Assembly (NCBI GenBank): GCA_021796055.1
Contig: JAJYOS010000013.1
Location: 1-18,942 of the forward strand
Length of the DNA stretch: 18,942 nucleotides
Source: Bacteroidota bacterium
GTDB lineage: Bacteria; Bacteroidota; Kryptoniia; Kryptoniales; JAKASW01
Direction of reading: 5' to 3'
Numbering within the stretch: position 1 is the stretch's first letter; every line of letters begins with the position of its first letter. Position numbers and translations under genes: made by a program. The notes beneath the pieces are model-generated. The model had not been told where the DNA came from. It saw only the letters and a program-made list of their open reading frames with translations, and did no database searches. This document shows, in pieces, positions 580 to 17,773 of this stretch.

Positions 580-670
580 GGATCGCGTCTAAATTTTTGA
601 GTCCTCTGCCGTGGTGCTGCTTGATCCGGACAACTCATGGCAGGAGGGCACTTACCAAGCCGGAGCGCCG

Positions 671-1846: not shown

Positions 1847-2618
1847 TTTTGAGACGATAAGCGTCGAGATCGGCGAAGGGATCGGGCGCCTGACAATGAA
1901 CAGGCCGGATTCATTGAACGCATTAAACGACAAGATGACTACCGATATCCAAATCGCCTTGAAGGAACTCTCGGCTGATAGGAGCGTGCGTTGTGTCTCA
2001 ATAACGGGGAGCGGAAGAGCGTTTTCATCGGGGCAGGACCTAAAAGAAGCATCGCAGCTTAAATCGTTCGCCGACTCGTTGAGAAAGAGGTACAATCCGA
2101 TCATAAAGCTTGTCACGGGGATGGAAAAGCCTGTTATAGCGCTCGTGAACGGAGTGGCGGCTGGGGCTGGGATGAGCCTGGCGCTCTCGTGCGATTATCG
2201 GATTATGACTTCAAGCTCGAAACTGATCCAGGCTTTCGTGAGAATCGGACTCGTCCCGGACTCGGGCTCCACATTCTTTCTCCCCCGTTTTGTCGGATAT
2301 GCTAAGGCCTTTGAACTGGCAGCCCTCGGAGAAGAGATTTCCTCGGAGGAGGCGTTGAGGCTTGGCATCGTAAACAGGGTGTTCCCGGACAACAAATTTG
2401 TGGCCGAGTCGGAGAAGATACTTGCAAGGTTCGCAAGCGGTCCGACGAAGGCGTATTCTACGATAAAGAAGATGCTCAGGCATTCGGCGGTATACTCACT
2501 CGAACAGACGCTTGAGTACGAAGCGTATATGCAGGAAATCTCCGGGCGGACGGAGGACGCAAAGGAGGCGACGCAAGCCTTTATCGAGAAACGTCCTCCG
2601 GTTTTCAGAGGCAATTAG
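1839..2618 (+). CDS. paaG: PaaG-like enoyl-CoA isomerase (crotonase fold)
   Basis: A 259-residue crotonase-superfamily enzyme. I place the start at ATG 1839, overlapping the upstream stop by 8 nt; a TTG at 1821 is possible but less likely. SSGQDL (63-68) and the GVAAGAG loop (105-111) supply the oxyanion hole. The two glutamates of true hydratases are absent: the usual E of the GGCELA loop is Ser113. VPDSGSTFFLP carries Asp141, which aligns with the catalytic Asp of PaaG, the 1,2-epoxyphenylacetyl-CoA isomerase that converts the ring epoxide to an oxepin and also acts as a cis-delta3/trans-delta2 enoyl-CoA isomerase. The terminal FIEKRPPVFRGN is family-typical. With PaaA-like and PaaH-like genes directly downstream, a role in a phenylacetyl-CoA-type pathway is likely. 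A general fatty-acid isomerase remains possible. Confidence 0.8.
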   Translation: MRDFETISVEIGEGIGRLTMNRPDSLNALNDKMTTDIQIALKELSADRSVRCVSITGSGRAFSSGQDLKEASQLKSFADSLRKRYNPIIKLVTGMEKPVIALVNGVAAGAGMSLALSCDYRIMTSSSKLIQAFVRIGLVPDSGSTFFLPRFVGYAKAFELAALGEEISSEEALRLGIVNRVFPDNKFVAESEKILARFASGPTKAYSTIKKMLRHSAVYSLEQTLEYEAYMQEISGRTEDAKEATQAFIEKRPPVFRGN

Positions 2619-2671
2619 CCGGCGCCGCGGAAGTAAATACATGAGGGGGGTGTGTGCCCCGTCTAAAGTCA

Positions 2672-2680
2672 GAGAGGAGG
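2672..2680 (+). promoter_or_regulatory. Strong ribosome binding site fixing the PaaA-like start
   Basis: GAGAGGAGG ends 6 nt before ATG 2687. This favours ATG 2687 over the upstream in-frame GTG at 2654. Confidence 0.75.
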
Positions 2681-2686
2681 ACGATT

Positions 2687-3544
2687 ATGGCGACAGATCC
2701 AGCAAGAAATCCATCCGGCCTGTCAGATGCAGAGCGCGAAAGACGGATGTGGGAGAAGTTGCAGAAGGGAGAGTCTATCGAAACGGTGGACGAGATGGGT
2801 GATGAATACTACGTCAGTCTCACCGGCCTTATGTTGCAGCAAGCGGATTCTGAACTCGCAGGCGCGTTCGGATGTGTGCCATGGATCGTAAAGGCGCCGA
2901 ATACCGAGGAGAAGCTTGCGGTCGCAAATATAGTCAAGGATGAGGTGCGCCACGCCAGGTCCATGTACCGCCTGCTGGCCGACATTGGCATCGATGCGGA
3001 ATCGCATGTCGCGATGCACGATTATACCCACGAGGCCGACTTCAATTCTGACGATCCAGGACTCGAGCGGGCCGTCGATAATGGGCGAGTGCACGTCTCT
3101 TATTACAAGATAGATACATGGACGGATCTTATACTGTTCCAGTTCTGTATGGACCGCGGCGCTGGTCACCAGCTGGAGGATGTTCGTAAGTCTTCGTATG
3201 GTCCGTGGAGGAGAGAGATCGAACGAATCTTCAAGGAAGAGGCAATGCACGTAAGTCACGGCGATTTCTGGGTGAGAAAGCTCGCGTTTGACCATTCCGC
3301 GAAAGCCGGAGTGCAGGAGGCTCTCAATCGCTGGTACCCGATGGCTATGAGTATTTTCGGCAGGTCGAACAATGAGGGGAACGCGCTTCACAGGAAATAC
3401 GGTTTGAAAGCGAGAGACAACGATGAAGTCCGCAAGGGATTCGTCGATGAGGTGCGGCTAAGATGTTCCGAATGCGGTTTGAAACTTCCAGACTGGAAAC
3501 CTGACTGGGAGAAGATGGAGGAAGATGGGGTGATATCAGCCTGA
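2687..3544 (+). CDS. paaA: PaaA/PaaC-family diiron oxygenase subunit (PaaA-like)
   Basis: A 285-residue protein of the phenylacetic acid catabolic family: ferritin-like four-helix bundles that in PaaA carry the diiron site epoxidising phenylacetyl-CoA. All six expected metal ligands can be placed: Glu56 (ADSELAG), Glu86 and His89 (KDEVRHARSMY), Asp147 (DTWTDLILF), Glu185 and His188 (KEEAMHVSHGD). SSYGPWRREIERI and the late FGRSNN segment also resemble PaaA. That points to the catalytic A subunit rather than the structural C subunit. The stretch between His89 and Asp147 appears longer than in E. coli PaaA (my recollection) and is rich in acidic residues (TH-EADFNSDDPGLE). The stop overlaps the next start (TGATG). 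Genes for PaaB, C, D and E are absent here, so partners must lie elsewhere or it works differently. The substrate is unproven. Confidence 0.8.
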   Translation: MATDPARNPSGLSDAERERRMWEKLQKGESIETVDEMGDEYYVSLTGLMLQQADSELAGAFGCVPWIVKAPNTEEKLAVANIVKDEVRHARSMYRLLADIGIDAESHVAMHDYTHEADFNSDDPGLERAVDNGRVHVSYYKIDTWTDLILFQFCMDRGAGHQLEDVRKSSYGPWRREIERIFKEEAMHVSHGDFWVRKLAFDHSAKAGVQEALNRWYPMAMSIFGRSNNEGNALHRKYGLKARDNDEVRKGFVDEVRLRCSECGLKLPDWKPDWEKMEEDGVISA

Positions 3545-4749
3545 TGAGAGCGGTAGGTATTGTAGGAACCGGCACAATGGGTGCGGGAATTGCCATCTCG
3601 TTCGCCCGGAGCGGATGGGACGTTTTGCTGTACGACCTCTCGAAAGAAATCGTGGCTCATTCGCTGGAATTAATCGTCAAAGAATTTCACCGCGAATCTG
3701 AAAAGGGGAGGATAAAGGCGGAGGACGCGCAGGCGGCGATTGCGAGGATCCATCCGCGGACTGAGCTGTCTGATTTCTCCGAGGCGCATCTAGTTGTGGA
3801 GGCGGTTACGGAAGATCTCGCGATCAAGAAGGAGCTATTCGCAAAGTTGGACCGGATATGTTCTTCTGAAGTTCCGTTGACCTCGTGCACGTCGAGCCTG
3901 TCCATCGGCGCAATTGCCAATGGTTGCGCCGGTCGGGACAGGATCGCGGGCCTGCATTTCTTCAATCCAGCGCATAAGATGAAACTGGTGGAGGTCGTGA
4001 AGACCGACTTCCTTGCGGGGGAGGCCATGCAGGAGCTTTCTCAGATCGTCAGACAGATAGGCAAGACGCCGATCCTTACCAGAGATACTCCGGGTTTTGT
4101 AGTGAACCGGTGTGCGAGGCATTTCTACCTTGAACCTCTGAGGTTTCTCTCCGAGCGATTGGGCAGCGTAGAGGAAATAGATTTCGCGTTTGAGTCTGCC
4201 GGGTTCCCGATGGGGCCGTTCAGACTGCTTGACCTCGTAGGTGTGGATGTGAATCTTCTCGTGTCAAAATCTATTTATGAGCAATTCTTCCACGAACCTA
4301 GATTCAGGCCCGTGATCATGCAGCAAAAGATGGTCGAGTCCGGTTTGCTTGGCAGAAAAACCGGGAAGGGATTTTACAGTTACGACGGCAAGTCGCCAAG
4401 GGCCGCCTTGAGAATTGAAAGGCGGGAGTCCGTTATTAGTGAGTCACTCTCTGAGATGGCGCATAAGATAGCTGCGAAGCTCGAGACAGGTGGCCAGCTC
4501 AATGTGCCTCAACAAGTGATTCTCGCGAGGACTATCTCCATGCTTATCAACGAAGCTCACCTGATGATGGAGGAAGGAATAGCCGACAGAGACTCCATTG
4601 ATCTGGCGATGAAGCTTGGTACAAATTTTCCAAAGGGGCCTTTGGAATTCTCCGATTCTATTGGCAAATATATGATAGCCGAATTCCTGCAGGCAATGCG
4701 CCGCACTTATGGTGACGCCTACAGGCCAAGTCTTCTGTTGTCCCAATAG
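3544..4749 (+). CDS. paaH: PaaH-like 3-hydroxyacyl-CoA dehydrogenase
   Basis: NAD-dependent oxidation of a 3-hydroxyacyl-CoA to the 3-oxoacyl-CoA. The Rossmann motif VGTGTMG is at residues 7-13, with Asp31 after the second strand favouring NAD. The catalytic set fits the 3HCDH family by spacing: Ser117 (TSSLSI), His138 and Asn141 (LHFFNP), Glu150 (KLVEVV) and Asn188 (DTPGFVVNR). The N-terminal domain spans about 3-182, followed by one C-terminal helical domain (about 184-280) and a second repeat of it (about 310-400), so the length of 401 exceeds single-domain forms. The ATG overlaps the PaaA-like stop by 1 nt, implying translational coupling. PaaH acts late in phenylacetate breakdown on 3-hydroxyadipyl-CoA; a broad beta-oxidation or 3-hydroxybutyryl-CoA role is the alternative. 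Confidence 0.85.
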   Translation: MRAVGIVGTGTMGAGIAISFARSGWDVLLYDLSKEIVAHSLELIVKEFHRESEKGRIKAEDAQAAIARIHPRTELSDFSEAHLVVEAVTEDLAIKKELFAKLDRICSSEVPLTSCTSSLSIGAIANGCAGRDRIAGLHFFNPAHKMKLVEVVKTDFLAGEAMQELSQIVRQIGKTPILTRDTPGFVVNRCARHFYLEPLRFLSERLGSVEEIDFAFESAGFPMGPFRLLDLVGVDVNLLVSKSIYEQFFHEPRFRPVIMQQKMVESGLLGRKTGKGFYSYDGKSPRAALRIERRESVISESLSEMAHKIAAKLETGGQLNVPQQVILARTISMLINEAHLMMEEGIADRDSIDLAMKLGTNFPKGPLEFSDSIGKYMIAEFLQAMRRTYGDAYRPSLLLSQ

Positions 4750-4761
4750 AAGGAGAAATGG

Positions 4762-5277
4762 ATGCGTTGCAAAAATCTTTCACTCATGTTGCTTCTTCTC
4801 TTTTCCGTCCCCGCATTGGCGCAGCCTCAGGTGTACAATTTTAAAGAGCTCCAGCGGTTTCTCCCGGAAGGCGATTTCGGCAAGTACAAGCGCGGCGAAC
4901 CGACCGGTGAGACATCCTCCATGATGGGGTTTGCAACCTCGTGGGCCCAGGTCATCTATCGCGCCGAGACGGACACTTCGAAGAGCGCCATATCCATCAA
5001 GATAACGGATATGGTGAGTATTCCTTCTTACATGTATATCGGCAGCGATGTCGATAAGAAAACAGAAACGGGATACGAGAAGACCGTCCTGTACAAAGGC
5101 ATTAGAGTGCTCGAGACCTTCGACAGCACATCGAAGGAAGGAAAGCTGCAGCTTCCCGTAGCAAATCGGTTCCTGGTAGAAGTAACCGGAAGCGGCGTTA
5201 TGAATGCTGCTCCACTTTACGATCTTTTGGATCGTTTGGACCTCAAGGCGTTGGAAAAACTTGGCCAGAAGTCTTAA
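4762..5277 (+). CDS. Small exported protein of unknown function
   Basis: I do not recognise the family. The first 20 residues form a clear signal peptide (MRCKNLSLMLLLLFSVPALA) with cleavage expected after ALA, so the mature protein of about 151 residues is probably periplasmic. There is no lipobox cysteine at the cleavage site. The mature part has alternating strand-like segments (SAISIKITDM, RFLVEVTGSG) and ends in an amphipathic helix (LYDLLDRLDLKALEKL). AGGAG at 4751-4755 sits 6 nt before ATG 4762. Only 12 nt separate it from the PaaH-like stop, so it is probably the last gene of that transcript. A link with aromatic catabolism is not evident from its sequence. Confidence 0.75.
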   Translation: MRCKNLSLMLLLLFSVPALAQPQVYNFKELQRFLPEGDFGKYKRGEPTGETSSMMGFATSWAQVIYRAETDTSKSAISIKITDMVSIPSYMYIGSDVDKKTETGYEKTVLYKGIRVLETFDSTSKEGKLQLPVANRFLVEVTGSGVMNAAPLYDLLDRLDLKALEKLGQKS

Positions 5278-6789: not shown

Positions 6790-7665
6790 CTATGAAGCCA
6801 GCAATGTCTCCCAATCAATTTTCCTTGCCCACTCCTCTAGCCTTTGCCAGCCGACCTCAGGAAAGTCCAGACGCAATTTACTTATGGCAGCTGTGTATTC
6901 GTTTTTCTCCTGCCATTCCATCATTATAGCCAAATCGGGGCTCTGAGCCCTGATGCTGGCTGGCGGAAAGCTTTCGTACTTGATCGTTCGGCCAATGATC
7001 TTCGAAAGGATAATTGCAGTTTCCTCCCCCGTGCGTTCGTCACCGGCAATATCTATGCGATCGCCCAGGAATTCGTTGCTATTCTCGATTACGAATGCGA
7101 CAAACGAGCCGATATCTTCAACCGCGATAAGCTGTATCGGCCGCGTGGCTGGAAGCGCCCTCGCTAGTTTTCCCTGGCGAATATTGCCGAGGGCAAACGG
7201 CTGTATGAAGTTTTCCATGAACGCCGTCGGACCGATGATCGTGTATGGTACTCCAGAGGCGGCGATGTACTGTTCCACCTTATATTTGGAGTCGAAGTGC
7301 GGAATGCGGGTATTCTTATCGGCGCTAGCCACAGAACTGAAAACAAGCTGGCCGACGCCTGCGGCTTTTGAGGCGTCGACGATGTTGACTCCCTGAGTCA
7401 CTTCCGCTTCATGACCGTTTTGAAACGGCGTCGTCACGGCAAATACAGCATTAACGCCTCTGAGCGCGCCAGCCAATGAGGCCTTGTCGGTTAGGTCGCC
7501 CTTCACAATCTCGGCGCCGGCTTTCTGAAGTAACATGGCGGCGGAGGAAGCCGGATTCCTTGTGAGAGCTTTTACTTTGAATCCGTTTTCTATAAGAGCT
7601 TTTGCCGCAGCCCCTCCCTGTTTTCCAGTCGCGCCCGCAACCAGAACTGTCCTATTGTCCATCAT
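6790..7665 (-). CDS. NmrA-family NAD(P)-binding protein (atypical SDR)
   Basis: 291 residues with a glycine-rich nucleotide motif GATGKQGG at 11-18, one strand into the protein, and the NmrA-type continuation: LTRNP after the second strand, GDLTDKASL, AVFAVTTPF, then VFSSVASADKN and GPTAFMENF. The usual SDR catalytic Tyr-x-x-x-Lys is not conserved as such (SKYKVEQYI replaces it), as in NmrA/HSCARG proteins, which sense the NAD(P)H ratio or act as quinone or isoflavone-type reductases. Cytoplasmic. An AAAGGGA sits upstream of the ATG at 7665; the second codon is also ATG. It is convergent with the DinB gene and follows the trehalase gene on the same strand after about 150 nt, so it may or may not belong to the trehalase transcript. 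Its substrate is unknown. Confidence 0.85.
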   Translation of the reverse strand: MMDNRTVLVAGATGKQGGAAAKALIENGFKVKALTRNPASSAAMLLQKAGAEIVKGDLTDKASLAGALRGVNAVFAVTTPFQNGHEAEVTQGVNIVDASKAAGVGQLVFSSVASADKNTRIPHFDSKYKVEQYIAASGVPYTIIGPTAFMENFIQPFALGNIRQGKLARALPATRPIQLIAVEDIGSFVAFVIENSNEFLGDRIDIAGDERTGEETAIILSKIIGRTIKYESFPPASIRAQSPDLAIMMEWQEKNEYTAAISKLRLDFPEVGWQRLEEWARKIDWETLLAS

Positions 7666-7816: not shown

Positions 7817-9820
7817 CTAGTTCCTAAACACCCACTCCGGCGGGATCAGCCTGTCGAGAACGGCGATGAGCTTCTTAGTGAGAAAAGTAAGCCCGATCAC
7901 GTATGATGCATTTGTCCAGCCGAAACCTTGCCGGGTAATGTATGAGAACTTTGTCCCGACGTTCCCGTACTCGGCGAAGACCTGCGATGAACGAGTAACC
8001 ATGTCGTACTTTTCAGCGATTGTGCCGTTATAGTTGTAAGCGTTGACAGTAATAGTGTAGAGCCACTTGTAAGCTAGTTCGCGTGCGAGTTTCCCATAGC
8101 CATAGTTTTTCAATCCAACCCATGTCAGTATCTGCTGCGGCGACCAGCCGAAAGGATAGTCCCACTGTGTCTGCGGGCGGTCTTTCGTGATTGGACCGCG
8201 CGACTTCTCCGTGGAGCCAACGATGCCGCCGGGCAGGTCGAGCAGCGGGAGCGCGTGTTTCACCAGTTCCTCCGCCTGCTTCTTCGTGGCGAGGTTCGCC
8301 CAGAGAGGATAAAACGTTGTTGCCGCGACATAGCCGGTCTGCCTCCTAGTGACGAAGTTATAGTCGAAGAACATGCCGGCCTTCGCATCCCAGAGATACT
8401 TTGTCATGAGCTTCTTACGTTTCACGGCCTTTTCGTACCAGGTCGAGCTCTTCTCGACTTTTCCGTTGCCTAGTCTCACCTCGCCGTTCAATTCATCCGA
8501 GATTATGTCGGCTATGTTCGTCTCCTCTTTGTAAAGGAGCGAGTTTAAGTCGACCGTGACGAGATCGATGCAGTCGTACTGGAGTCGATAGCTTGCGTCG
8601 TTACCGGATTCGCGCATCGCCCGGTCGTTCTTGAAGAATGTATCGAGCGAAGGTACTTTAAGTCTTCCAGAGAGGTACTCATCCTTGAATTGTTCTTCGC
8701 TCATGTTGTACTTCTTTGCGTATTCGGCATACAGATAATGATACCTGTGCGGTTCGACCTCCGGCGGCGGTCCGATGCCGTTGTCATAGTATCTGCTCAG
8801 TCCGGTCTTCGTGAGATGATTCGGACCCATCCAGTAGTTGTTGTACTGCTTGATCGCCGCTTCAAGCACTTCTTTCAGCCAGGCTTTTGTCTCTTCATTT
8901 TTCGGAAGCTCCTGATAAACCGCCAGTGCCATGGATGTGAAAAAGGGGGGCTGTGACCTCGTCAGGTAATAAGTCCTGTTGGCGTTGAGGATTTTGCCGT
9001 AGTGATCAATCTCGTAAATGAAATTGTCGACCATCGACTTCGCGAGCGCGACTTTGCCGTCCTGGAGGAGACCGAGCGTTATGAAGTAGCTATCCCAGCC
9101 GTACATTTCATTAAATCTTCCGCCGGGAACGACGAACGGCGTCGCCGTGATTTTGCCATCGGGCTTCCTGTACAACTTGAGGCTAAGGATGCCTGGCCTG
9201 TCGTTAAGACTCTCGACGTATTGGGGGGTAACTTTGGCGGGAAGCATTACGACTTTCATTTTGAAATCCGGCCTGCTGCGCGCCACACCGGAAAAGTAAT
9301 CGTAACCCAATGTGTCGCCATCCGGAACGTAAACGTAATTGAAACCGTCGATCGTCTTTACCTTCTCATCCTTGAATATCTTCTCGAGGCCCGCTTCGTC
9401 GATTCGTCTCGTTAGGCCGGACCAGTAGAGATTCTTTATAGACTCCGCGATGCGCTGGACGGGCGGCTGAAAAATTTCGGCGCCGCTCAGGGTTAAGGTG
9501 TCCTTTCCTTCGTCCTCCGCAAGTTTCAGATTTTCGAGGAGGTTCGCGAGGTAGTAAGTCTCATCGACTTCATATCTGTGCCCGTCGAGCGCAGTCAACC
9601 AAAAGCGTCTGTTTCCCAGGTCGGTGTCGGGAATGTGCGGGTCATCTATTGTTATTCTCTTGTCGTGGTCTGTGTCTTCCTTTGCGATGAGCGAGTCCAA
9701 AGTCGGCTTGACAAGGACCTCTATGCTGGTGAGGTGCTCGTCCGCTGACTGAGCGAAGCCCGGTTTGAGCAGGAAGAGAGTGGCCGCGATCGTGGCAAGG
9801 ATCAGAAGTAATCGCCTCAT
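7817..9820 (-). CDS. Exported GH37 trehalase, neutral-trehalase type with calcium loop
   Basis: Hydrolyses alpha,alpha-trehalose to two glucose molecules by inversion. A signal peptide (about 1-23, ending GFA) directs it to the periplasm. Both GH37 signatures are intact: PGGRFNEMYGWDSY (232-245) and QWDYPFGW (552-559). The expected catalytic acid is Asp408 (RESGNDASYR) and the base Glu603 (AEKYD). The RESGxDxSYR and TVDLNSLLYK stretches resemble fungal neutral trehalases rather than E. coli TreA. DTDHDKRITIDD at 49-60 reproduces the Asp/Asp/Asn-Asp/x/Asp spacing (0, 2, 4, 6, 11) of the Ca-binding loop described in yeast Nth1. The length of 667 exceeds bacterial TreA (about 560). Its start lies only 10 nt after the GH65 stop, with AAGGAA just ahead of ATG, so the two are one transcript. 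Confidence 0.92.
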   Translation of the reverse strand: MRRLLLILATIAATLFLLKPGFAQSADEHLTSIEVLVKPTLDSLIAKEDTDHDKRITIDDPHIPDTDLGNRRFWLTALDGHRYEVDETYYLANLLENLKLAEDEGKDTLTLSGAEIFQPPVQRIAESIKNLYWSGLTRRIDEAGLEKIFKDEKVKTIDGFNYVYVPDGDTLGYDYFSGVARSRPDFKMKVVMLPAKVTPQYVESLNDRPGILSLKLYRKPDGKITATPFVVPGGRFNEMYGWDSYFITLGLLQDGKVALAKSMVDNFIYEIDHYGKILNANRTYYLTRSQPPFFTSMALAVYQELPKNEETKAWLKEVLEAAIKQYNNYWMGPNHLTKTGLSRYYDNGIGPPPEVEPHRYHYLYAEYAKKYNMSEEQFKDEYLSGRLKVPSLDTFFKNDRAMRESGNDASYRLQYDCIDLVTVDLNSLLYKEETNIADIISDELNGEVRLGNGKVEKSSTWYEKAVKRKKLMTKYLWDAKAGMFFDYNFVTRRQTGYVAATTFYPLWANLATKKQAEELVKHALPLLDLPGGIVGSTEKSRGPITKDRPQTQWDYPFGWSPQQILTWVGLKNYGYGKLARELAYKWLYTITVNAYNYNGTIAEKYDMVTRSSQVFAEYGNVGTKFSYITRQGFGWTNASYVIGLTFLTKKLIAVLDRLIPPEWVFRN

Positions 9821-9830
9821 AAAACGTTCC

Positions 9831-12002
9831 TTATTTCTGAATGAGTCTTGTGTTTCCGCGCTCGACTATAGCATCATACAGCTTTCCCCTGAAATGCAGA
9901 TTTGTAATTCTGAGCGAGGTCACTCCGGTCGGGAGCATCGGCTTATACTCCTTCACGAGGCCGCGCGATGTTATCCTGAGTCCGGTGTAGCCGAAAAGCA
10001 CCTGTTGCAGGAAGCCTCCCGTACCTGTGAGGAAATTTGTCGACATGTTTTCTGGCGTTTCGGCAAAGACGTTAAATGAACCCCTGATATATGACCGGTA
10101 GCTCATTTTATAAAAATCTTCGAACAGAGTCCTGTCCCGGATTTCAGCGGCCACGATCTGGTAAAGCGTTATACCCATCATGACTCCAGTACCGTTTTTT
10201 TTCATGAAACCAAGAGCGTTCACGAGGTCGTTCTTCTTGACCTCATTTGGGACCTTCAGCTCAAGTGGATAATAAAGAAGCGGGACGACTGCTCCGAGAG
10301 ACTGCGGAGGCGCGCCCTGGTATGTGAGGTAACAATGTCTGGTGCTGTCGTAAGGTATGTAAAGCCCGTCCGCGACGCGACTCCACATGGAATCCGGACG
10401 TTCACCGAGAAGCTTTGCCGCTCTTGTCGCTATCTCCAGGTTCCTTCTTGCGACCAGGTTTGTATAGGCATCGTTGTTGACGCCGATGAGTCCTTCATCA
10501 ACCGAGACCACATGATCGATGTTATACGTCTTGTTCGCCGGATCATATTTGACCCTGCTGGTCCAGAAGTCCGCCGTTTCCTTGATAACGGGATAGCCGA
10601 AATGCTTGAGCCATGATTTGTTCTGGGTCGCGAGATAATACTGCCATTGGGCGAAAGCCACATCGCCCGTGACGTGATTCTCATAAAGCGCGTTCTGGTA
10701 CGCGAACTTTGGACACGCCTCGTTTCCGTTCTCGTCCGACTCCCAAGGATACATCGCCCCCCGGTAGCCGTTGAGCTTCGCGTTAGCTTCCGCCGCGGGG
10801 AGCGCTTTGTATCTGAACATTACCATTGACCTGGCTATGTTGGGATGCATAAGAAGGAGAGGGGGAAACATCCATGTGTCTGAATCCCAGAAAATGTGTC
10901 CGTAGTATCCGTCGCTCGAAAGTCCCATCGGCGGGATGCCGAAGTCGCTCCCGGCGCGCGCGCTCGAAAGGAGATAAAACATCGAGGAGTGAATTACCTT
11001 CTGAAGTGCAGGATCTCCTTTGACTATGATATCCGTCTTCCAAAGCTTGTGCCATGCTGTCTCGCTGGATTTTAGGATAGTCTGGAATCCACTTAATGCC
11101 GCGTTTGATGCTGTGCGTCTTGCCGACAGCAACGGGTCTTTTGTATCCCGTGATGAAAATATCCCCACGTAGCGATAGAACCGGTAAATCGTCCCAGCCT
11201 TCGCGTTGAAACTAACAGTAATTGAGGGACCGACTTCCGTCGTGTCTCCGGTTACCCGCGCGTTGATGAAGCGTGGATACCATGATATGTTTTGGGCAAT
11301 CGCGACTCGAACGGAATTCCCGTCCGGTTTCGCCACCACCGATTCAACCGCGCCGGTTTGGGCACCGTGTGCCATAAGATTCTCTATTGTCATGTGGCCC
11401 GGATACCAGACATTCGGAAGGCCGTTTATCATTTTAATGTTGATATCCGCGATCTTGGCGAGTTCCATCCTCTTCGGCTCGCTCCATTGTATGATAGGTA
11501 GTATGATTCTCACAGGGCCCGATTTATCTACTTTAACCGTGAATTCCATCCCCGCGAGATTCGGGTTTGACCTCGACACGAAAAGGGTCGTTGAAATATC
11601 CGTCTTGTTACTCTTTTCGATCCAGGTATACCCGGTCTTTAAAACGCCGTTATACATATCGAGTGTCTGACGGTAGTCCTTGATAGCGCCGCCGGTAACA
11701 TCGGTTTCGTTGAGCCAGCTACCACCGTTGAAGAAGTTCACCGCGTTCCAAGCGGGGAGGGAAGCTATTCGCGCTACATCTCCGGGATAATGCTCATAGA
11801 TCCACGCCATATAGGAATGCGTCGGCATCGTGCCGAGCTGCGACGAAGATACGCCGATGTTTCCATTGCCGATATACGTGGGAGTGTACTTCACCGAGAC
11901 GCGGTTCGCGGAAAGCTGAAAATCCTTAGGTTGCGCGTTAACAGCCGCTGTCGCAACGAGAAGGAGAATTAGAATGCAAGTGTGGAGTGTGTATCGTGCC
12001 AT
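9831..12002 (-). CDS. Exported GH65 hydrolase, acid-trehalase-like
   Basis: A 723-residue inverting alpha-glucosidase with a signal peptide (about 1-23, ending VNA) and no lipobox, so periplasmic. GH65 marks are GYYGHIFWDSDTWMFP (365-380), YPWESDENGNE (418-428) and VDEGLIGVNNDAYTN (501-515), with Glu503 as the expected general acid. In place of a phosphate-binding loop there is FAETPENMSTNFLTGTGGFL, with Glu648 in the place of a hydrolase general base. The 145-residue acid-base spacing fits GH65 hydrolases rather than phosphorylases. The closest described relatives by pattern are fungal acid trehalase Ath1 and bacterial kojibiose hydrolases. The usual DEYH after the acid is DEGL here, which may alter substrate choice. 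The neighbouring GH37 trehalase favours trehalose, but kojibiose or another alpha-glucoside is possible. GAAAGAGG lies about 8 nt before ATG. Confidence 0.88.
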   Translation of the reverse strand: MARYTLHTCILILLLVATAAVNAQPKDFQLSANRVSVKYTPTYIGNGNIGVSSSQLGTMPTHSYMAWIYEHYPGDVARIASLPAWNAVNFFNGGSWLNETDVTGGAIKDYRQTLDMYNGVLKTGYTWIEKSNKTDISTTLFVSRSNPNLAGMEFTVKVDKSGPVRIILPIIQWSEPKRMELAKIADINIKMINGLPNVWYPGHMTIENLMAHGAQTGAVESVVAKPDGNSVRVAIAQNISWYPRFINARVTGDTTEVGPSITVSFNAKAGTIYRFYRYVGIFSSRDTKDPLLSARRTASNAALSGFQTILKSSETAWHKLWKTDIIVKGDPALQKVIHSSMFYLLSSARAGSDFGIPPMGLSSDGYYGHIFWDSDTWMFPPLLLMHPNIARSMVMFRYKALPAAEANAKLNGYRGAMYPWESDENGNEACPKFAYQNALYENHVTGDVAFAQWQYYLATQNKSWLKHFGYPVIKETADFWTSRVKYDPANKTYNIDHVVSVDEGLIGVNNDAYTNLVARRNLEIATRAAKLLGERPDSMWSRVADGLYIPYDSTRHCYLTYQGAPPQSLGAVVPLLYYPLELKVPNEVKKNDLVNALGFMKKNGTGVMMGITLYQIVAAEIRDRTLFEDFYKMSYRSYIRGSFNVFAETPENMSTNFLTGTGGFLQQVLFGYTGLRITSRGLVKEYKPMLPTGVTSLRITNLHFRGKLYDAIVERGNTRLIQK

Positions 12003-12057
12003 AGTGTAGCCTCTTTCTGGATCTTGCTTTAGATGAATACTTGTATCGCTGTGTCGG

Positions 12058-12085
12058 CTGATCGCTGCTTAAATGGCGCGATCAG
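12058..12085 (-). promoter_or_regulatory. 8+8 bp inverted repeat upstream of the GH65 start
   Basis: CTGATCGC (12058-12065) and GCGATCAG (12078-12085) are perfect inverted repeats separated by 12 nt, centred about 70 nt before the GH65 ATG. It could be an operator for a dimeric regulator or a hairpin in the 5' leader of the hydrolase transcript. No regulator gene other than FecI/FecR is present in the window. Confidence 0.35.
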
Positions 12086-12102
12086 AAGGATCTTCGGTCC
12101 GA

Positions 12103-12252
12103 TCAAGTGAACCTGGCATTCTCGGACGGTGTGGAGTCGGACCGGTACCTGTTTTTCCGTCGCAGCGTTGTTTCGAGCTCCTCGCCCATGCGTTGCCGTA
12201 ATTTACGTTCCGATGCGTTCAGCTTAATATAACGCTCAAGGCGTGTGTTCAT
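12103..12252 (-). CDS. Possible 49-residue highly charged small protein
   Basis: An ATG frame of 49 codons begins MNTRLERYIKLNASERKLRQ and stays helix-forming and rich in Arg, Lys and Glu for its first 35 residues, then becomes polar (SDSTPSENARFT). There is no clear ribosome binding site, and the frame is closed by a stop about nine codons upstream. It could be a small basic protein, a coding remnant, or chance. It lies within the GH65 leader, so translation through it could influence GH65 expression. Confidence 0.2.
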   Translation of the reverse strand: MNTRLERYIKLNASERKLRQRMGEELETTLRRKNRYRSDSTPSENARFT

Positions 12253-12583
12253 CCATTTGCCGTTCTGCTCGCGTTCAGGTCACTTGAAATGGAATCACGG
12301 GTCTAGCCATTGCGTTGTTGTGTTCTCTGGAACTAGAAGAAGCGCGAGCAATCTCGCAACACAGCATTGCAGTTAGCGGCCGCGGTAATCGTCGATTGTA
12401 CTCCCGCAATTGAGTGGGTGTCTGTCGTTGCGGAACTCGGAGCGACGAATGTCGTGAACGTGTGAGGTGTCGAAGAAGAAAGTGAGCTCGGATGTGGCAC
12501 GCCGCCGCGAAAAAGGAATCACTGAGCGAAATAAAAGCCGAAGTTGTTTCGGATGACATGGCCTTATAAGCTGCTCATCTAAA

Positions 12584-12609
12584 CTGGCTGGGAGGATCCT
12601 CCCAGCCAG
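12584..12609 (-). terminator. 26 bp perfect palindrome after the TonB receptor gene
   Basis: An 11 bp perfect GC-rich stem (CTGGCTGGGAG and its complement) around a GATC loop starts 18 nt after the receptor stop. On the minus strand it is followed by TTTAGA, a weak U-tract. It is best read as a factor-independent terminator or strong attenuator that separates receptor expression from the downstream GH65-GH37 pair. Confidence 0.65.
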
Positions 12610-12627
12610 CGAATGTTGTTTCACATT

Positions 12628-15600
12628 TCAGAATTGGTATCCCACACTAAATGTCAGCCTTCGCGGGAGTATCGGACGTGCGAGGAAATAACTTCCGACC
12701 GCGCTTGCTCTCGGGTTGCCCTCCTCGAGACCCTGGCTCTGGAAGAGGTTCGTCACGCCGAGCCTGAGAGTTATAGCCTGAGACGCTACATAATAGGACA
12801 AGCCGGTGTTCATGTAAGTATAAGCCGGAAGCGCCGTACCGACGACGAAGACAGCCTGACCGCTGCTCGTGTAGCCGCCAAAGTTCAGTCCGCCTATGCG
12901 GTTACCGACGTAATGCCAATCGGCCTCGAGCGTGAAGTTATTCCAGGTGTATGTGCCAAGGAGGTCGCCGATTGAGTTCGGGATTCCGTTTAGTGCGAAG
13001 CTCCCGCCGCTCGCGTAAGTAGCCTTCAGAAGGGTCCAGTTCCCTCGCAGGTACAGACCTGACACGGGCATCCAGGTCGCATCAGATTCGATTCCGTAGG
13101 CGTTTTGGTTCAGACCATAGTTCGTCACCCACACGACTGATCCATTAGGCTGGTTGACAGCTCCCTGGCTGGTGATGTTGGTTAGGTTTGCCCAAAACAC
13201 ATCCGCATTGAAAGCAAATACGTCGCTATAATATTTGAAACCGCCTTCGTATTGCAATGTGTGCTCATCCTGAAAAAGGGCAATCTGTGCAGGCACACCT
13301 TGCAGCAAGTTGTCGAGGGATGGCATTTCATAACCACGGCTGAAGTTCGCGTAGAAAGCAAACACTTGAGGCAAGATGTCGTAATTGAGCCCTGCCGTGA
13401 ATGACCAGTCGTGGAGCCAGGTGCTCATATGTCGATAGCTTCCATTTCCCCACGCGATGCGCGCATAAGGGGGAGTTGTAGAGTCAACGGGAGTGCCGTT
13501 GGGCTGAACCGTGGAATTATTCTCGGTCGTCTGAACAAATCCGTCGCCTTCCCAGCGAGCTGCCAGGTTTAGCCGCAGCCTGTCTGTTACCATCATCTGA
13601 TCGCTTATCACTCCGTCTAAGATACTCGCCTGTCCCTGGCCGTTTACATAGTATGACATATAGTTCGTGAATCCATTCTGTGTTATGTCGAGCGTCTTGG
13701 TGGCGCCTGTTGTGGGGTCGATGTAATTCACCGTCGCATCCAGGAAATGAGTAATGTCCTGAACATCGGTTAGGATGGTTGGGAAGTACCAGTGGTTCCC
13801 CATCGTGTAGCTGGCAAAATAGAGTATCACGCTAAGGTCATGGTGGTACAGGAAATCTCCTCCAAGATCGAGAGACTTATTGATCTGGAATTGTTCCTGG
13901 AATGCTGACATCGGTTTGGCGACATGCCATTCGTTTCCGGGGGATATCAACCCGTTCGTTGGGGTATACTCGGAATTCGGAAACGCCGCGTGAGTTCCGT
14001 TGGGGTTGAACTGGTTGGTGTAAGTGATGTTTATGTTTGTAGGAGCATTGTTCACGAACGTCGCGCTGTCAGTCCCGTGGAAGTATCCCGCGTGCCACAA
14101 ACTGGCTGCCTCTTGAGTTTTCCAGTAGTTAATCGGCTCCGCGTTACCGGGTATGATTGCGTTCCATTCCTGATAGTTGCTCATTACCTGGAGTTGGTTC
14201 TTGACATTCCAGCCATCCGGGAAGTTGAGGTTGATTTCGCCCGTCAGCCAACCAGCGTTCGTCAGAAGTCCGTGTCCGAGGGGAAGTGTGAGTGCTCCAT
14301 CCGGAGTTGGAACGGAAATGTTAAGCCCTTCCGGAGAGTTGAACGAGCCATAGGTTCCGAAACCCGGCACAAACTGAGGTTTTGACGGGTTGTCGTGCGG
14401 AAGGTCGAGGATGAATTGGCTCTTAGAGTTGATGTATTTGCCGTAGAATCTGATGTAGCCGTTGGAAAGAAGCCTGGTCACATTAGCCTGAAGCTGTCCT
14501 CCAATGTTGCCGTCAAATCCCGGATCCCTCACGCCATGATCGTACAGATAGAAGCCGCCTAAGTTGAAACGCCATTTCGGTTCGATCGGTCCGTTGACGT
14601 CGAAATCGACTTTGGCGAGACCTTGCGTCCCGACCTGGACTTGCGTTTCACCTGCGAGAACGGGGCCGCCGGTTTTGGATATTAGATTGATAACGGCAGC
14701 CGGCGTGTTTGAGCCGAAAGTACCCGCGCTTCCGCCGCGCACTACCTCGACGCGCTGGACGTTGTCATCAATTCTAAACAGATTGTCCGTGTTCATGAAG
14801 AAGATGTTTTGCGTCGGGAAGCAAGGAATCCCATCCTGCATGAAATTGATGAAGATTGTCCCGTAAATGCCACGCATGGTATAGTTCTCATTCACATAGC
14901 CGCCCGAACTCTCAACCCTGGTGAAGCCCGGGACATATTTCAGGAATTCGGTTGTACTGAACGGCTGCGCTAGCGTGAGTTCCTTCGGGCTCACTGTACT
15001 GATGGAGTTTGTAGCGTTCAGTTTCTGCACGGGGATAGTCGTTCCTGTCACGACCACTTCGTGCATTCCCAGGAGATCGAGCGGAAGTGAGAAATTCTGT
15101 ACGGTGGTCTTCCCGTCTGACACCGTAATTCGAAAAATCTCGGTTCGATAGCCTACCGCGCTAGCCCTCAACTCATGCGTGCCGCTCGGTGCGCTCGAGA
15201 TCGTGTAATTGCCGTCAACATCGGCAGCGGCACCCAGACTTGTCCCGACTATTAACACGTTTGCGAATTGAACCGGGTTACCATTCTGATCCACAACCCG
15301 TCCCTTTATCGTCCCCTGTCCGGGCGGATCGTTCTTTGTCTGCGTTATGACAACTTGATTTTCCTTCATGGGTATCCAGCTCAGATTCGTTCCTGCTAGA
15401 GTTTCATTAATGGCATCTTCGACGGTGACATTTCTCACCTGCACGCTCACCTGCCGGTCCACCGGAACGATCTCTTTGCTGTAGGAGAAGTGGACTCCCG
15501 TTTTCGATGAGATTTCTTTCAACGCCGTCGCGAGAGGAACGTTCTGCAGATCAATTGACACACTGTTTTTTAGGTAGCCGGTTTCGGAGCCAGCAGCGGC

Positions 15601-15738
15601 GCCAAATGGCTGTGCTCCTCCGGAATTTTCAGATGAATATTCTGATGAGGGATCAGCTGCTTGGGCGCAGACGTCCGGGACGCTCAGCGAGAAAGCGGCG
15701 ATCGCCAACCCGATCAGAATCGTGTAGAGCTTTTTCAT
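12628..15738 (-). CDS. TonB-dependent outer-membrane receptor with STN signalling domain
   Basis: A 1036-residue outer-membrane transporter. Visible parts are a signal peptide (about 1-26), an STN secretin/TonB short N-terminal domain (about 58-133, VSIDLQNVPLATALKEIS...), a carboxypeptidase-regulatory-like domain (about 141-220, IKGRVVDQNGNPVQFANVLI), a linker VVVTGTTIPVQ that may include the TonB box, a plug (about 243-355, DNVQRVEVVRGGSAGTFGSNTPAAVINLISK), and a beta-barrel to the C-terminal aromatic VGYQF. STN domains relay ligand binding to a FecR-type anti-sigma, and the FecR gene is 34 nt upstream. GAGGAGG precedes ATG. The adjacent trehalases suggest import of trehalose or a related glucoside. 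The usual SusD-type partner gene is missing, so it may act alone, like FecA. The ligand is inferred from neighbours only. Confidence 0.93.
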   Translation of the reverse strand: MKKLYTILIGLAIAAFSLSVPDVCAQAADPSSEYSSENSGGAQPFGAAAGSETGYLKNSVSIDLQNVPLATALKEISSKTGVHFSYSKEIVPVDRQVSVQVRNVTVEDAINETLAGTNLSWIPMKENQVVITQTKNDPPGQGTIKGRVVDQNGNPVQFANVLIVGTSLGAAADVDGNYTISSAPSGTHELRASAVGYRTEIFRITVSDGKTTVQNFSLPLDLLGMHEVVVTGTTIPVQKLNATNSISTVSPKELTLAQPFSTTEFLKYVPGFTRVESSGGYVNENYTMRGIYGTIFINFMQDGIPCFPTQNIFFMNTDNLFRIDDNVQRVEVVRGGSAGTFGSNTPAAVINLISKTGGPVLAGETQVQVGTQGLAKVDFDVNGPIEPKWRFNLGGFYLYDHGVRDPGFDGNIGGQLQANVTRLLSNGYIRFYGKYINSKSQFILDLPHDNPSKPQFVPGFGTYGSFNSPEGLNISVPTPDGALTLPLGHGLLTNAGWLTGEINLNFPDGWNVKNQLQVMSNYQEWNAIIPGNAEPINYWKTQEAASLWHAGYFHGTDSATFVNNAPTNINITYTNQFNPNGTHAAFPNSEYTPTNGLISPGNEWHVAKPMSAFQEQFQINKSLDLGGDFLYHHDLSVILYFASYTMGNHWYFPTILTDVQDITHFLDATVNYIDPTTGATKTLDITQNGFTNYMSYYVNGQGQASILDGVISDQMMVTDRLRLNLAARWEGDGFVQTTENNSTVQPNGTPVDSTTPPYARIAWGNGSYRHMSTWLHDWSFTAGLNYDILPQVFAFYANFSRGYEMPSLDNLLQGVPAQIALFQDEHTLQYEGGFKYYSDVFAFNADVFWANLTNITSQGAVNQPNGSVVWVTNYGLNQNAYGIESDATWMPVSGLYLRGNWTLLKATYASGGSFALNGIPNSIGDLLGTYTWNNFTLEADWHYVGNRIGGLNFGGYTSSGQAVFVVGTALPAYTYMNTGLSYYVASQAITLRLGVTNLFQSQGLEEGNPRASAVGSYFLARPILPRRLTFSVGYQF

Positions 15739-15772
15739 CGCTTAATCCTCCTCATCTTTGTTTAACGCTGTC

Positions 15773-16867
15773 TTACAAGGGGTTCCTCGTTGAAAAGAGG
15801 ACCGAGTCATTGGACGCTTTATAGCTGATTCGCAAGGCGAGTGCTATTATTCTTATAATGTCTTGCCGGGTTTGATGGCTCGTAAATGTGGCCGTTAAAG
15901 TTCTCGAGTAAATCGAAGGTTGAGTCGCATAACACTTAATCCCGTAATTCCACTGAAGCTGTCTGAAAACGTTTCGAATGCGTTCGTTATGAAATATGAG
16001 TTCCCCTCTGATCCAGGCTATCTTATCGCCGACGTCCGTGTAAGTCGGCTCAACGGCAATCCTTCCTTTCCTCACGACAGAATACTCTCCGCCTGTGATC
16101 GTCGTTGGCCTGGCGTTCAGCTGACCATTAGGCGTAAGGAGAACCTTGCCGTCGGTTACTGCTACCTGTGTTTGTCCGTCGCCGGGCCACGCCGCGATAT
16201 TGAATTTGGTGCCGACATCCCTGATCACTGCGTCGCTTGTTCTTACGATCAATGGCCTGCGATTGGAATGCACGACCTCGAAGTATGCTTCACCGGTGAG
16301 GTGGAATTCGCGTCTCCCGCTGGGAACGTTGGCATATCGCAGGCTGCTCGCGGAGTTGAGAAGAATTCTCGTTCCGTCTTCGAACGAAATTGTGACTCTT
16401 TGACCAGATTTAGTGGATATTGTCTCGTGAAGAGCTGCCCGTTCCTGGCTAACAGCCGAGTATCTCTTCGCAACCTCTCTCAGGTAGAGGCCGATGTAAG
16501 CGGCTCCGATGAGAACCATCATTACGGCGGCTATTTGCAGGAGACGACCAGGAAGCGATCCTTCGGACGCTTTTGTCGGAACTATTTTATAAAGAAATAT
16601 TTCCATTTGGTTGGTGCGATCGACGTCAACCGCAACTTCGCCGAGTTTCTTTCTTAAGGATGGTAATGAGCGCCACGAATTCCACTCACCGCTTCGGCCG
16701 CCCGATAGCATCCAGATTTCGCGTAACTCATCGAATGTCTGTCTTGATTCCGGGCTGGAATTGATCCATTCTTCAATCTGGAGCCGCTCCCTCTCGCTGC
16801 ACTCCGAAGCGAGATAACGTCCAACCGCCCTAAACCCACGCCTTGTCAACTGAGTATCTTCCACCAA
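15773..16867 (-). CDS. FecR-family anti-sigma factor / signal transducer
   Basis: Inner-membrane protein that holds the cognate ECF sigma factor and receives the periplasmic signal from the receptor's STN domain. The N-terminal cytoplasmic part (about 1-90; SERERLQIEEWINSSPESR, FDELREIW) is typical of the sigma-binding region. A single membrane helix lies at about 107-128. The FecR domain (about 148-243) shows GQRVTISFEDGTRILLNSAS, GEAYFEV and VGTKFNIAAW, and the C-terminal part (about 283-360, IAWIRGELIFHNERIRNVFRQL) matches the DUF4974/STN-like module. The start is TTG 16867 or GTG 16864, neither with a strong ribosome site. It lies 74 nt after the sigma gene and 34 nt before the receptor gene, so all three are probably one transcript. 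Confidence 0.93.
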   Translation of the reverse strand: MVEDTQLTRRGFRAVGRYLASECSERERLQIEEWINSSPESRQTFDELREIWMLSGGRSGEWNSWRSLPSLRKKLGEVAVDVDRTNQMEIFLYKIVPTKASEGSLPGRLLQIAAVMMVLIGAAYIGLYLREVAKRYSAVSQERAALHETISTKSGQRVTISFEDGTRILLNSASSLRYANVPSGRREFHLTGEAYFEVVHSNRRPLIVRTSDAVIRDVGTKFNIAAWPGDGQTQVAVTDGKVLLTPNGQLNARPTTITGGEYSVVRKGRIAVEPTYTDVGDKIAWIRGELIFHNERIRNVFRQLQWNYGIKCYATQPSIYSRTLTATFTSHQTRQDIIRIIALALRISYKASNDSVLFSTRNPL

Positions 16868-16941
16868 CTTGTTCTGAAAGACTTTACATACACTCTAAAT
16901 ACAAACCAGAACTTCTTTACCCCTATACCCAACCACTATTC

Positions 16942-17625
16942 TTACCGCCTAAAAGGCGATAGCTCATTCCTGAGGATTTTCAACGCGTGGGAAATTTGAT
17001 TTTCTACCGTTTTCTGGGAAATTTCCAAGACTCCGGCGATTTCAGTGTAGGTAAGCCCTTCTCGGCGGTTAAGTACGAAAACCAGGCGGCATTTTTCCGG
17101 AAGGTGGTCAATCGCCTTGCTAACAGCCATGAAGAGGTCTTTGTCGGCCACTTCGTCGATCAAATCGACGTCGGTACCAGTTGCAAAAGGTTCTCCCTGT
17201 TCAGAGGTAGGGAAGGAGTTTTGCTTTCTGCTTTTGAGGAGGTTGATAGCTTGATTTCGGGCAGCTTTATAGAGGTAGGCGCCAACGGAACCCTTTGGGT
17301 TCCAATGCGCCCTGTTCGTCCATATTCTTACGAATATGTCCTGAACCAGATCCTCAACGTCATCCGGTGAACGGGTGAGACTGAGTGTGAACCGGCAAAG
17401 GCCATCGTAGTACCGGTGGAACAGTTGTTCCAATGCTAACTGGTCGCCGATTCTCACCCTCTCGATGAGATCCCTTTCGAACGCGGGAGATATCGAGGCT
17501 GAGCCATAAGCATGCTGAAACAGTGCCACGTTCCTTACGGATTGTAATCCACGCTCCCCAATTAAACAAGTTGTTCCAGAATGCAGCGCCTCCATTCGAG
17601 CACCAGAGATCCTACCTGGTGTCAC
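16942..17625 (-). CDS. FecI-type ECF RNA polymerase sigma factor
   Basis: Directs RNA polymerase to promoters of the receptor operon when released by FecR. Region 2 is visible in LEQLFHRYYDGLCRFTLSLT and DDVEDLVQDIFVRIW, and the linker in GAYLYKAARNQAINLLKSRK. Region 4 with its helix-turn-helix is LTYTEIAGVLEISQKTVENQISHALKILR near the C-terminus. From GTG 17625 the protein is 227 residues with about 45 residues before the usual ECF start, so the true start may be later: ATG 17595 or GTG 17529. GTG 17625 has a weak GGAAG at suitable distance, whereas the AAGGA before GTG 17529 is too close. Start unresolved. It is divergent from the threonine dehydrogenase gene across about 150 nt, which must hold both promoters. 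Confidence 0.93.
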   Translation of the reverse strand: MTPGRISGARMEALHSGTTCLIGERGLQSVRNVALFQHAYGSASISPAFERDLIERVRIGDQLALEQLFHRYYDGLCRFTLSLTRSPDDVEDLVQDIFVRIWTNRAHWNPKGSVGAYLYKAARNQAINLLKSRKQNSFPTSEQGEPFATGTDVDLIDEVADKDLFMAVSKAIDHLPEKCRLVFVLNRREGLTYTEIAGVLEISQKTVENQISHALKILRNELSPFRR

Positions 17626-17773
17626 TCGTGCGCTTCCGTCTTCGAAGTGTTGCTAGAAATAGCTGTCATGACTTAACTTGACCGATAAAATTCAGGCGGA
17701 CTACATGCCTGTATCGGCCACCGAACGTCGTCGGTCTTCAAACAGAATCCCGGCGCTTCTTCAAGGAGAATGA

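What the first reader, a model, noticed from the sequence alone, without database searches (positions are those of the whole stretch)
7817..17625. Fec-signalled trehalose locus with two unrelated exported trehalase-type enzymes and no SusD
Directly visible: ECF sigma, FecR anti-sigma and an STN-type TonB receptor in one tight run, followed on the same strand by exported GH65 and GH37 hydrolases. Family knowledge: STN receptors signal through FecR to FecI; glycan loci of Bacteroidota usually pair the receptor with a SusD lipoprotein, absent here. Inference: a self-inducing uptake and hydrolysis system for trehalose or a trehalose-containing or related alpha-glucoside, in which binding by the receptor switches on its own operon. 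Having acid-trehalase-like and neutral-trehalase-like enzymes side by side is unusual and suggests two substrates, two pH ranges, or stepwise trimming of a larger glucoside.
Basis: partly seen in the sequence, partly recalled or inferred. Interest (0 to 1): 0.72.

Follow-up and report, generated by a model that had tools for sequence, protein, structure and literature searches.

The report
Sugar-sensing receptor beside two glucoside-splitting enzymes
This stretch of an uncultured bacterium's genome probably lets the cell sense, import and split small glucose-rich sugars related to trehalose, using a signalling receptor of the kind best known from iron uptake; the parts are known but this combination is a new variant.

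Summary
The gene run is real and the coordinates are exact: ECF sigma, FecR, STN-type TonB receptor, GH65, GH37, all on the minus strand. Three corrections. (1) The GH65 enzyme is not evidently a trehalase: its closest solved relative is the kojibiose hydrolase FjGH65A, whose acid, base and Trp-Glu pair it shares, though other sugar-binding residues differ. Only GH37 is trehalase-like. (2) GH65 beside GH37 is not unusual: in a 395-genome phylum sample 14 of 37 GH65 genes lie within 12 kb of a GH37 gene (0.2 expected). (3) Lack of SusD is not special: 13 genus genomes have 0-2 SusD genes each, and the receptor models as an FhuA/FpvA-type barrel.
Receptor and GH65 are together in all 13 strong GH65 loci found in the class. 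No sigma/FecR was found in the seven outside the genus (one not testable). Close relatives carry GH37 without the 8-kb module at the same site; three loci add a GH31 alpha-glucosidase. A strong hairpin follows the receptor in 13 of 13 loci. Most likely: self-inducing scavenging of alpha-1,2-glucosides and trehalose-type sugars. Substrate and induction are untested.

The parts
16942..17625 (-). ECF sigma factor (TIGR02985, Bacteroidota type); real start probably near 17530
   Evidence: start by alignment with relatives
15773..16867 (-). FecR-type anti-sigma factor (FecR + FecR_C domains; one membrane span by eye)
   Evidence: sequences
12628..15738 (-). TonB-dependent receptor with N-terminal STN signalling domain; FoxA/FhuA/FpvA-type fold by Foldseek rank
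15340..15492 (-). STN signalling domain of the receptor (residues 83-133)
   Evidence: 49.8 bits, cut-off 28.4
12583..12610 (-). GC-rich hairpin directly after the receptor gene; attenuator or mRNA-stabilising element (inferred)
   Evidence: a strong hairpin follows the receptor in 13 of 13 loci; its sequence is alike in G009 but different in most others
12003..12627 (-). 625-bp gap between receptor and GH65; a GH31 gene sits in this place in three related loci; no GH31 remnant detected here
9831..12002 (-). Exported GH65 hydrolase, related to kojibiose hydrolase (W420-E421, acid E503, base E648)
7817..9820 (-). Exported GH37 trehalase of the neutral-trehalase type
9724..17648 (.). Limits of the module absent from G010, G013, G011 and G002, where the SDR gene lies directly beside GH37
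   Evidence: edges by BLAST (left edge seen against all four, right edge against three, not G002)

Best explanation
A self-inducing scavenging locus for small alpha-glucosides of the kojibiose/trehalose kind. The receptor binds and imports the sugar (inferred). Its STN domain passes the signal to FecR, which frees the ECF sigma factor to transcribe sigma, fecR and receptor (inferred from family knowledge). Exported GH65 removes alpha-1,2-linked glucose or a related alpha-glucoside unit, and exported GH37 splits trehalose, probably in the periplasm (location inferred from signal peptides read by eye). A hairpin after the receptor gene lowers or separates expression of the enzyme genes (inferred). 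The module was placed, or kept, next to a GH37 gene that relatives carry alone. Shown here: the families, the catalytic residues, the conserved receptor-GH65 partnership, the GH65-GH37 clustering, and the labile regulatory part.
For: Domains. GH65 aligns best with FjGH65A (319.6 bits, TM 0.81/0.89) and keeps Trp-Glu, the acid and the base, which the FjGH65A paper ties to kojibiose recognition and hydrolysis (PMC8626586 passages). GH37: 577 bits to neutral trehalase in the PDB. Receptor beside GH65, or one gene away, in 6 of 6 genus loci and 7 of 7 loci of other families in the class (all 13 GH65 places). 22 shared contig lengths between the two lists of best homologues, 0.65 expected. GH37 in 33 of 37 GH65 genomes against 42 of 358 others; 14 of 37 GH65 genes within 12 kb of GH37, 0.18 expected. 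A GH31 related to alpha-1,3-glucosidase LlGH31_u1 in three loci. Two other Fec receptor loci in G001 also carry glycosidase genes.
Against: The receptor's family and fold matches are to siderophore receptors, so iron chelates are not excluded by sequence. The GH65 falls below the NCBIfam kojibiose-hydrolase cut-off. The hairpin and 625-bp gap leave co-transcription unproved. The MFS transporter that accompanies the locus in four loci elsewhere has no match in 13 genus genomes (no positive control). G002, G010, G011 and G013 keep GH37 without the module.
Confidence: 0.55

Rival explanations
1. Two units side by side: GH37 is an old stand-alone periplasmic trehalase, and the sigma/FecR/receptor/GH65 module serves a different alpha-glucoside; only genome order joins them.
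For: GH37 stands alone beside the SDR gene in four genus genomes, the GH37 tree groups the window with two of these (94/96), and a hairpin separates receptor from enzymes.
Against: All five module-bearing genus loci that can be read that far have GH37 next to GH65; 4 of 7 loci of other families carry it too; a different GH37 type clusters with GH65 across the phylum.
Confidence: 0.22
2. Pure trehalose locus: GH65 is itself a trehalase, redundant with GH37.
For: Linkage with GH37; JGI's name 'trehalose/maltose hydrolase-like predicted phosphorylase' on many relatives; loss of several FjGH65A sugar-binding residues.
Against: Best matches are kojibiose hydrolase and PGGHG, both acting on alpha-1,2 links, and some relatives are named PGGHG; the Trp-Glu pair is kept; the characterised MmGH did not cleave trehalose (PMC8537180).
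Confidence: 0.1
3. The receptor takes up a siderophore or other non-sugar ligand and its link with glycosidases is accidental.
For: Best family and fold matches are siderophore receptors; the Fec system was first known from iron.
Against: Receptor-GH65 adjacency across families; two other Fec receptor loci in G001 also carry glycosidases; no siderophore gene among the 17 window ORFs scanned.
Confidence: 0.07
4. The cluster targets branched alpha-glucan fragments, with GH31 and GH65 trimming alpha-1,3/1,2 branches and GH37 incidental, like FjDexUL.
For: GH31 between receptor and GH65 in three loci; FjDexUL pairs GH31 with GH65 (PMC10316084 passages).
Against: No GH66, GH97 or SusD among the window ORFs scanned; the window lacks the GH31 at this place; the GH31s match best an enzyme specific for nigerooligosaccharides.
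Confidence: 0.06

Closest known systems
Fec-type cell-surface signalling (FecI-FecR-FecA; FpvA, FoxA)
   Same: ECF sigma, FecR and STN-bearing TonB receptor in that order; FoxA, FhuA and FpvA are among the nearest folds.
   Different: Linked to alpha-glucoside hydrolases rather than iron genes.
FjDexUL, branched dextran locus of Flavobacterium johnsoniae (PMC10316084, passages)
   Same: A GH65 alpha-1,2-glucosidase; GH31 in three relatives of the window.
   Different: SusR, SusC, SusD, SusE/F, GH66 and GH97 there and no GH37 among its eight genes; here no SusD and ECF/FecR control.
SusD-less carbohydrate loci of Xanthomonas/Caulobacter (CUT loci; recalled)
   Same: TonB receptor plus glycosidases without SusD.
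   Different: The window's receptor does not match TIGR01782, whereas receptors of the two other long Fec loci of G001 do (288.7 and 320.4 bits, cut-off 310).
FjGH65A / MmGH kojibiose hydrolases
   Same: Fold, acid, base, Trp-Glu pair.
   Different: Thr407, Trp473 and Lys538-Gln539 not kept; 27% identity to FjGH65A in the structural alignment.

Membership tests
Fec-type cell-surface signalling system | ECF sigma gene next to a FecR-domain anti-sigma gene | tested here: met
Fec-type cell-surface signalling system | Receptor with N-terminal STN domain | tested here: met
Fec-type cell-surface signalling system | Ligand-dependent autoinduction | not testable with these tools
   needs expression data
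SusC/SusD polysaccharide utilization locus | SusD lipoprotein gene beside the receptor | tested here: not met
   none among 17 window ORFs scanned
SusC/SusD polysaccharide utilization locus | Receptor of the SusC/RagA family (TIGR04056) | tested here: not met
   70 bits against a cut-off of 368; a SusC in a GH65 locus of the phylum scores 681
GH65 kojibiose hydrolase | Acid and general-base glutamates of GH65 hydrolases, no phosphate-binding Ser pair | tested here: met
   E503 and E648; no Ser pair at the aligned place
GH65 kojibiose hydrolase | Kojibiose +1 subsite Trp-Glu-Thr | tested here: inconclusive
   Trp-Glu kept, Thr replaced by Gln
GH65 kojibiose hydrolase | Subsite -1 residues Trp-Asp and Lys-Gln | tested here: inconclusive
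   Trp372-Asp373 kept; Lys538-Gln539 of FjGH65A not kept
GH65 kojibiose hydrolase | NCBIfam NF053734 equivalog cut-off of 800 bits | tested here: not met
   441.5 bits
GH65 acid trehalase | Closest to fungal acid trehalases | tested here: inconclusive
   no acid trehalase among the 11 PDB matches, but the PDB may hold none, and no fungal acid trehalase sequence was compared
GH37 neutral trehalase | GH37 domain with catalytic Asp and Glu contexts (positions recalled) | tested here: met
   (ESG-D-YR and EKYD aligned with PDB neutral trehalase)
GH37 neutral trehalase | Ca2+-binding segment PF07492 | tested here: inconclusive
   23.6 bits, cut-off 25; several close relatives carry it in the precomputed annotation

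The most novel reading that the evidence does not exclude
A TonB receptor family with a siderophore-receptor-type fold has become the dedicated outer-membrane importer for alpha-1,2-glucosylated or trehalose-type compatible solutes (for example 2-O-alpha-glucosyl-trehalose or glucosylglycerol), partnered by an uncharacterised GH65 subgroup with a changed sugar site, with its STN/FecR/ECF signalling plugged in or dropped repeatedly while receptor and enzyme stay together.
Probability: 0.25. Interest if true: 0.62.

Novelty: new variant of a known kind. Interest (0 to 1): 0.42.

Why it matters
If right, it gives a case where iron-type surface signalling serves sugar capture without SusD, and a natural series in which one receptor-enzyme pair is kept while its signalling domain and regulators change. 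It also points to an uncharacterised GH65 subgroup with an altered sugar-binding site, and suggests that a GH65 glucosidase and a trehalase act on a common or co-occurring substrate across Bacteroidota.

Tried and rejected
Rejected: SusD loss as the key feature (0-2 PF07980 matches per genus genome; other SusD families were not searched); a GH31 remnant in the 625-bp gap (blastx against the called ORFs found none). Rfam and tRNA searches of the window were empty. Upstream sequences of SIG and GH65 were printed and read by eye only; I saw no shared promoter motif, and no statistical search was made. The consensus scan found 16 terminator-like sites where shuffles give 11 (sd 3.4); it did not list the strong hairpin, for want of a T-run, but did list a weaker one at 12552-12538 just behind it.

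Gene trees did not settle whether the module was gained or lost. The flanking genes and GH37 place the window with G010/G013, which lack the module, while GH65 places it with G009. For the shared taxa the unrooted trees are compatible and only the distances conflict.

Literature, listings only unless stated: GH65 with GH37 and 'polysaccharide utilization' gave 7 papers, none of whose titles or abstract starts describes this pairing; 'selaginose' gave one off-topic paper; 'Kryptonia' with 'trehalose' gave two; the searches (3 papers; 12 of 17 listed; 8 of 15 listed) showed no title or abstract start describing such a locus. Subscription journals are mostly not held. Papers opened: PMC8537180 (parts 1-2 of 7, and passages), PMC8626586 (outline with abstract, and passages), PMC10316084, PMC9061262 and PMC8115612 (passages only; the last is not used in the argument).

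The first label count for STN (18 of 61) was too low: seven more receptors have a 120-132-residue N-terminal extension. Five of them give a weak STN match below the cut-off and two (P0165, P0207) give none but look alike by eye. Both counts are reported.
Full report
What is there. On the minus strand lie an ECF sigma factor, a FecR protein, a TonB receptor with an STN domain, a GH65 and a GH37 enzyme. GH65, GH37 and receptor each begin with a signal-peptide-like stretch (read by eye). A divergent SDR gene (17774) and an NmrA-like gene (6790-7665) flank the run. The window's own assembly is not held; the nearest genome, G001, shares 93% of sampled words. Its proteins here are 99-100% identical, although the locus is split between two of its contigs. 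Of 14 named records with a related GH37, the eight closest (62-86%) are titled 'Bacteroidetes bacterium' (seven) and 'Candidatus Kryptoniota bacterium' (one).

GH65. Among solved structures the best match is 7fe3, FjGH65A, the kojibiose hydrolase of Flavobacterium johnsoniae (319.6 bits), followed by human PGGHG, an alpha-glucosidase of collagen glycans. The AlphaFold model (mean pLDDT 89.8) again puts FjGH65A first and PGGHG second. The passages of PMC8626586 that I read name Glu472 and Glu616 as acid and base, Trp391, Glu392 and Thr407 as contacts at +1, Trp473 at +2, and Trp343, Asp344, Lys538 and Gln539 at -1. In an alignment of 21 GH65 proteins acid, base, Trp-Asp and Trp-Glu are present in all 21. 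In the 12 of the window's group (five genus, seven other families) Thr407 is Gln and Lys-Gln is not kept; Trp473 is Gly or Ser, Gly in the window. Gln436 is invariant in the 59 sequences. So this is a hydrolase related to the alpha-1,2 group with an altered sugar site, and not evidently an acid trehalase. The NCBIfam kojibiose hydrolase model scores 441.5 bits against a cut-off of 800.

GH37. The protein matches PDB neutral trehalase (5nis; yeast Nth1, recalled) over residues 38-664 of 667 (577 bits), with the catalytic contexts aligned (positions recalled, not taken from a paper).

Receptor. NCBIfam puts it nearer to siderophore receptors (97.6 bits) than to SusC (70 bits), both far below cut-off. 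The model (mean pLDDT 83.8) matches FoxA, FhuA and FpvA; no SusC-type entry is among the 50 rows shown. That would explain the absence of SusD. By PF07980 the genus has 0-2 SusD genes in each of 13 genomes. G001 has four FecR matches; apart from the window's, two are long, and these lie beside receptors related to TIGR01782 (288.7 and 320.4 bits, cut-off 310), each followed by a T9SS-sorted protein and then, after one further ORF, a GH3 or a GH2-like gene. SusD does directly follow a Fec receptor in G003 and G004, so both kinds exist in the genus.

Conservation. A GH65 search of 391 class genomes at E 1e-100 gave 13 places in 12 genomes, and I examined all 13; weaker matches (E 1e-26 to 1e-29 in six genomes) were not examined. 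A receptor lies next to GH65, or one gene away, in 13 of 13: six in the genus (75-100% identity; in G001 and G005 the receptor is split over two contigs), four in other families at 44-47%, three at 24-26%. GH37 is in the locus in 5 of 6 genus places (the sixth contig ends inside GH65) and in 4 of 7 others. In the genus FecR is seen in 6 of 6 and sigma in 5 of 6 (one contig ends first). In the seven others BLAST found no match to the window's sigma or FecR in the fetched stretches (one contig starts inside the receptor). Two of these (L094, L103) have an NtrC-type response regulator upstream, and L103 also a histidine-kinase-type ATPase protein; the other five were not scanned for this.

Wider linkage. 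The 120 best homologues of the receptor and the 117 of GH65 that have a contig length share 22 lengths, where 0.65 are expected by chance (at most 4 in 1000 trials). This is indirect, since equal length is taken as the same contig. Homologues of both are named from Gemmatimonadota, but the pairing there was not shown. In 395 phylum genomes, 37 have the GH65 at E 1e-60 or better. GH37 (77 places in 75 genomes; I dropped five weak partial rows) occurs in 33 of these 37 and in 42 of the other 358; 14 of 37 GH65 genes start within 12 kb of a GH37 and 19 within 25 kb, with 0.18 expected at 12 kb. Four of the 37 are class members, and genomes are not independent. I fetched nine of the 33 neighbourhoods outside the class: five show GH37 in the stretch, of a shorter type (505-531 aa) 30-35% identical to the window's over the matched part. 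So the pairing is recurrent and involves two GH37 types.

Module and empty site. Nine of 13 genus genomes have a close GH37 and five have receptor and GH65. In G010, G011, G013 and G002 the SDR gene lies directly beside GH37, without sigma, FecR, receptor and GH65. Similarity to these empty sites ends near 17648 on the SDR side (four of four) and begins near 9724 on the other, just after the GH37 signal peptide (three of four; no match for G002). Three loci (G003 contig 7, G005, G012) have a GH31 of 927-950 residues between receptor and GH65. For the two of these that I searched, the best solved relative is LlGH31_u1 (7wj9), an alpha-1,3-glucosidase that prefers nigerose, then kojibiose, and does not cleave trehalose (passages of PMC9061262). 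G001 has a more distant copy (49%) elsewhere.

Signalling domain. In a tree of 61 receptors built without the N-terminus, the STN label (18 of 61 by Pfam) needs at least 7 changes, 6 forced by supported branches. Counting seven more with an STN-like extension (25 of 61) it needs 9, 8 forced. This was the quick tree method. Receptors 71-74% identical to the window's lack the domain. The receptor-enzyme partnership therefore looks steadier than its signalling. FecR is only 37-50% identical between genus loci and sigma 56-66%, against 75-78% for the receptor, whose first 50 residues are 20-32% identical.

Hairpin. A strong hairpin follows the receptor in 13 of 13 loci. Its sequence is alike in pairs (window and G009; the two G003 loci; G012 and G005) and otherwise different. 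The first ten were seen before the last three were added, and z-scores run from -2.5 to -10.6. The best 50-nt fold has a median of -25.6 kcal/mol, against -11.7 for 34 other same-strand genes with gaps of 90 nt or more in the same loci (Mann-Whitney p 4e-6; rows not independent) and -16.8 for 20 genes facing an oppositely directed neighbour; single controls reach -29.6. Most lack a T-run by eye, so termination is uncertain; attenuation or stabilisation of receptor mRNA is an inference.

Verdict. The anatomy is that of a Fec-type, SusD-less alpha-glucoside scavenging locus. Candidate substrates are kojibiosides, 2-O-alpha-glucosyl-trehalose (selaginose, recalled), 2-O-alpha-glucosylglycerol and trehalose. 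No call here distinguishes them.

Noticed in passing
window 1055-5277, +: Pseudouridine synthase, enoyl-CoA hydratase, PaaA/PaaC-family protein, 3-hydroxyacyl-CoA dehydrogenase and an ORF without Pfam match form a phenylacetate/beta-oxidation-like run.
   Followed up: no
window 611-1015, +: A 134-aa ORF matches only pieces of enoyl-CoA hydratase, best its C-terminal end, while a complete copy follows at 1821-2618; it may be a remnant or a frame break.
   Followed up: no
L117 9680-14938 and L118 7528-12800: Two other ECF-FecR-receptor runs of G001 are followed by T9SS-sorted proteins and GH3 or GH2-like enzymes, suggesting Fec control of several SusD-less sugar loci.
   Followed up: partly
L089 and L090 (G003): One genome bin carries two copies of the locus, one with and one without the GH31 gene, with nearly the same receptor 3' flank; the bin is 5% contaminated, so two strains are possible.
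   Followed up: partly
window 12003-12627: 625 bp after the receptor with no assigned gene; only a 37-base stretch, the hairpin, resembles the equivalent place in G009. G009 has a 228-aa ORF there with no Pfam match.
   Followed up: partly
L094 12355-13578, L103 6831-8198, L106 10488-11711, L107 10375-11592: A conserved MFS transporter (65-85% identical) accompanies receptor, GH65 and GH37 in four loci outside the genus but has no match in the 13 genus genomes.
   Followed up: partly
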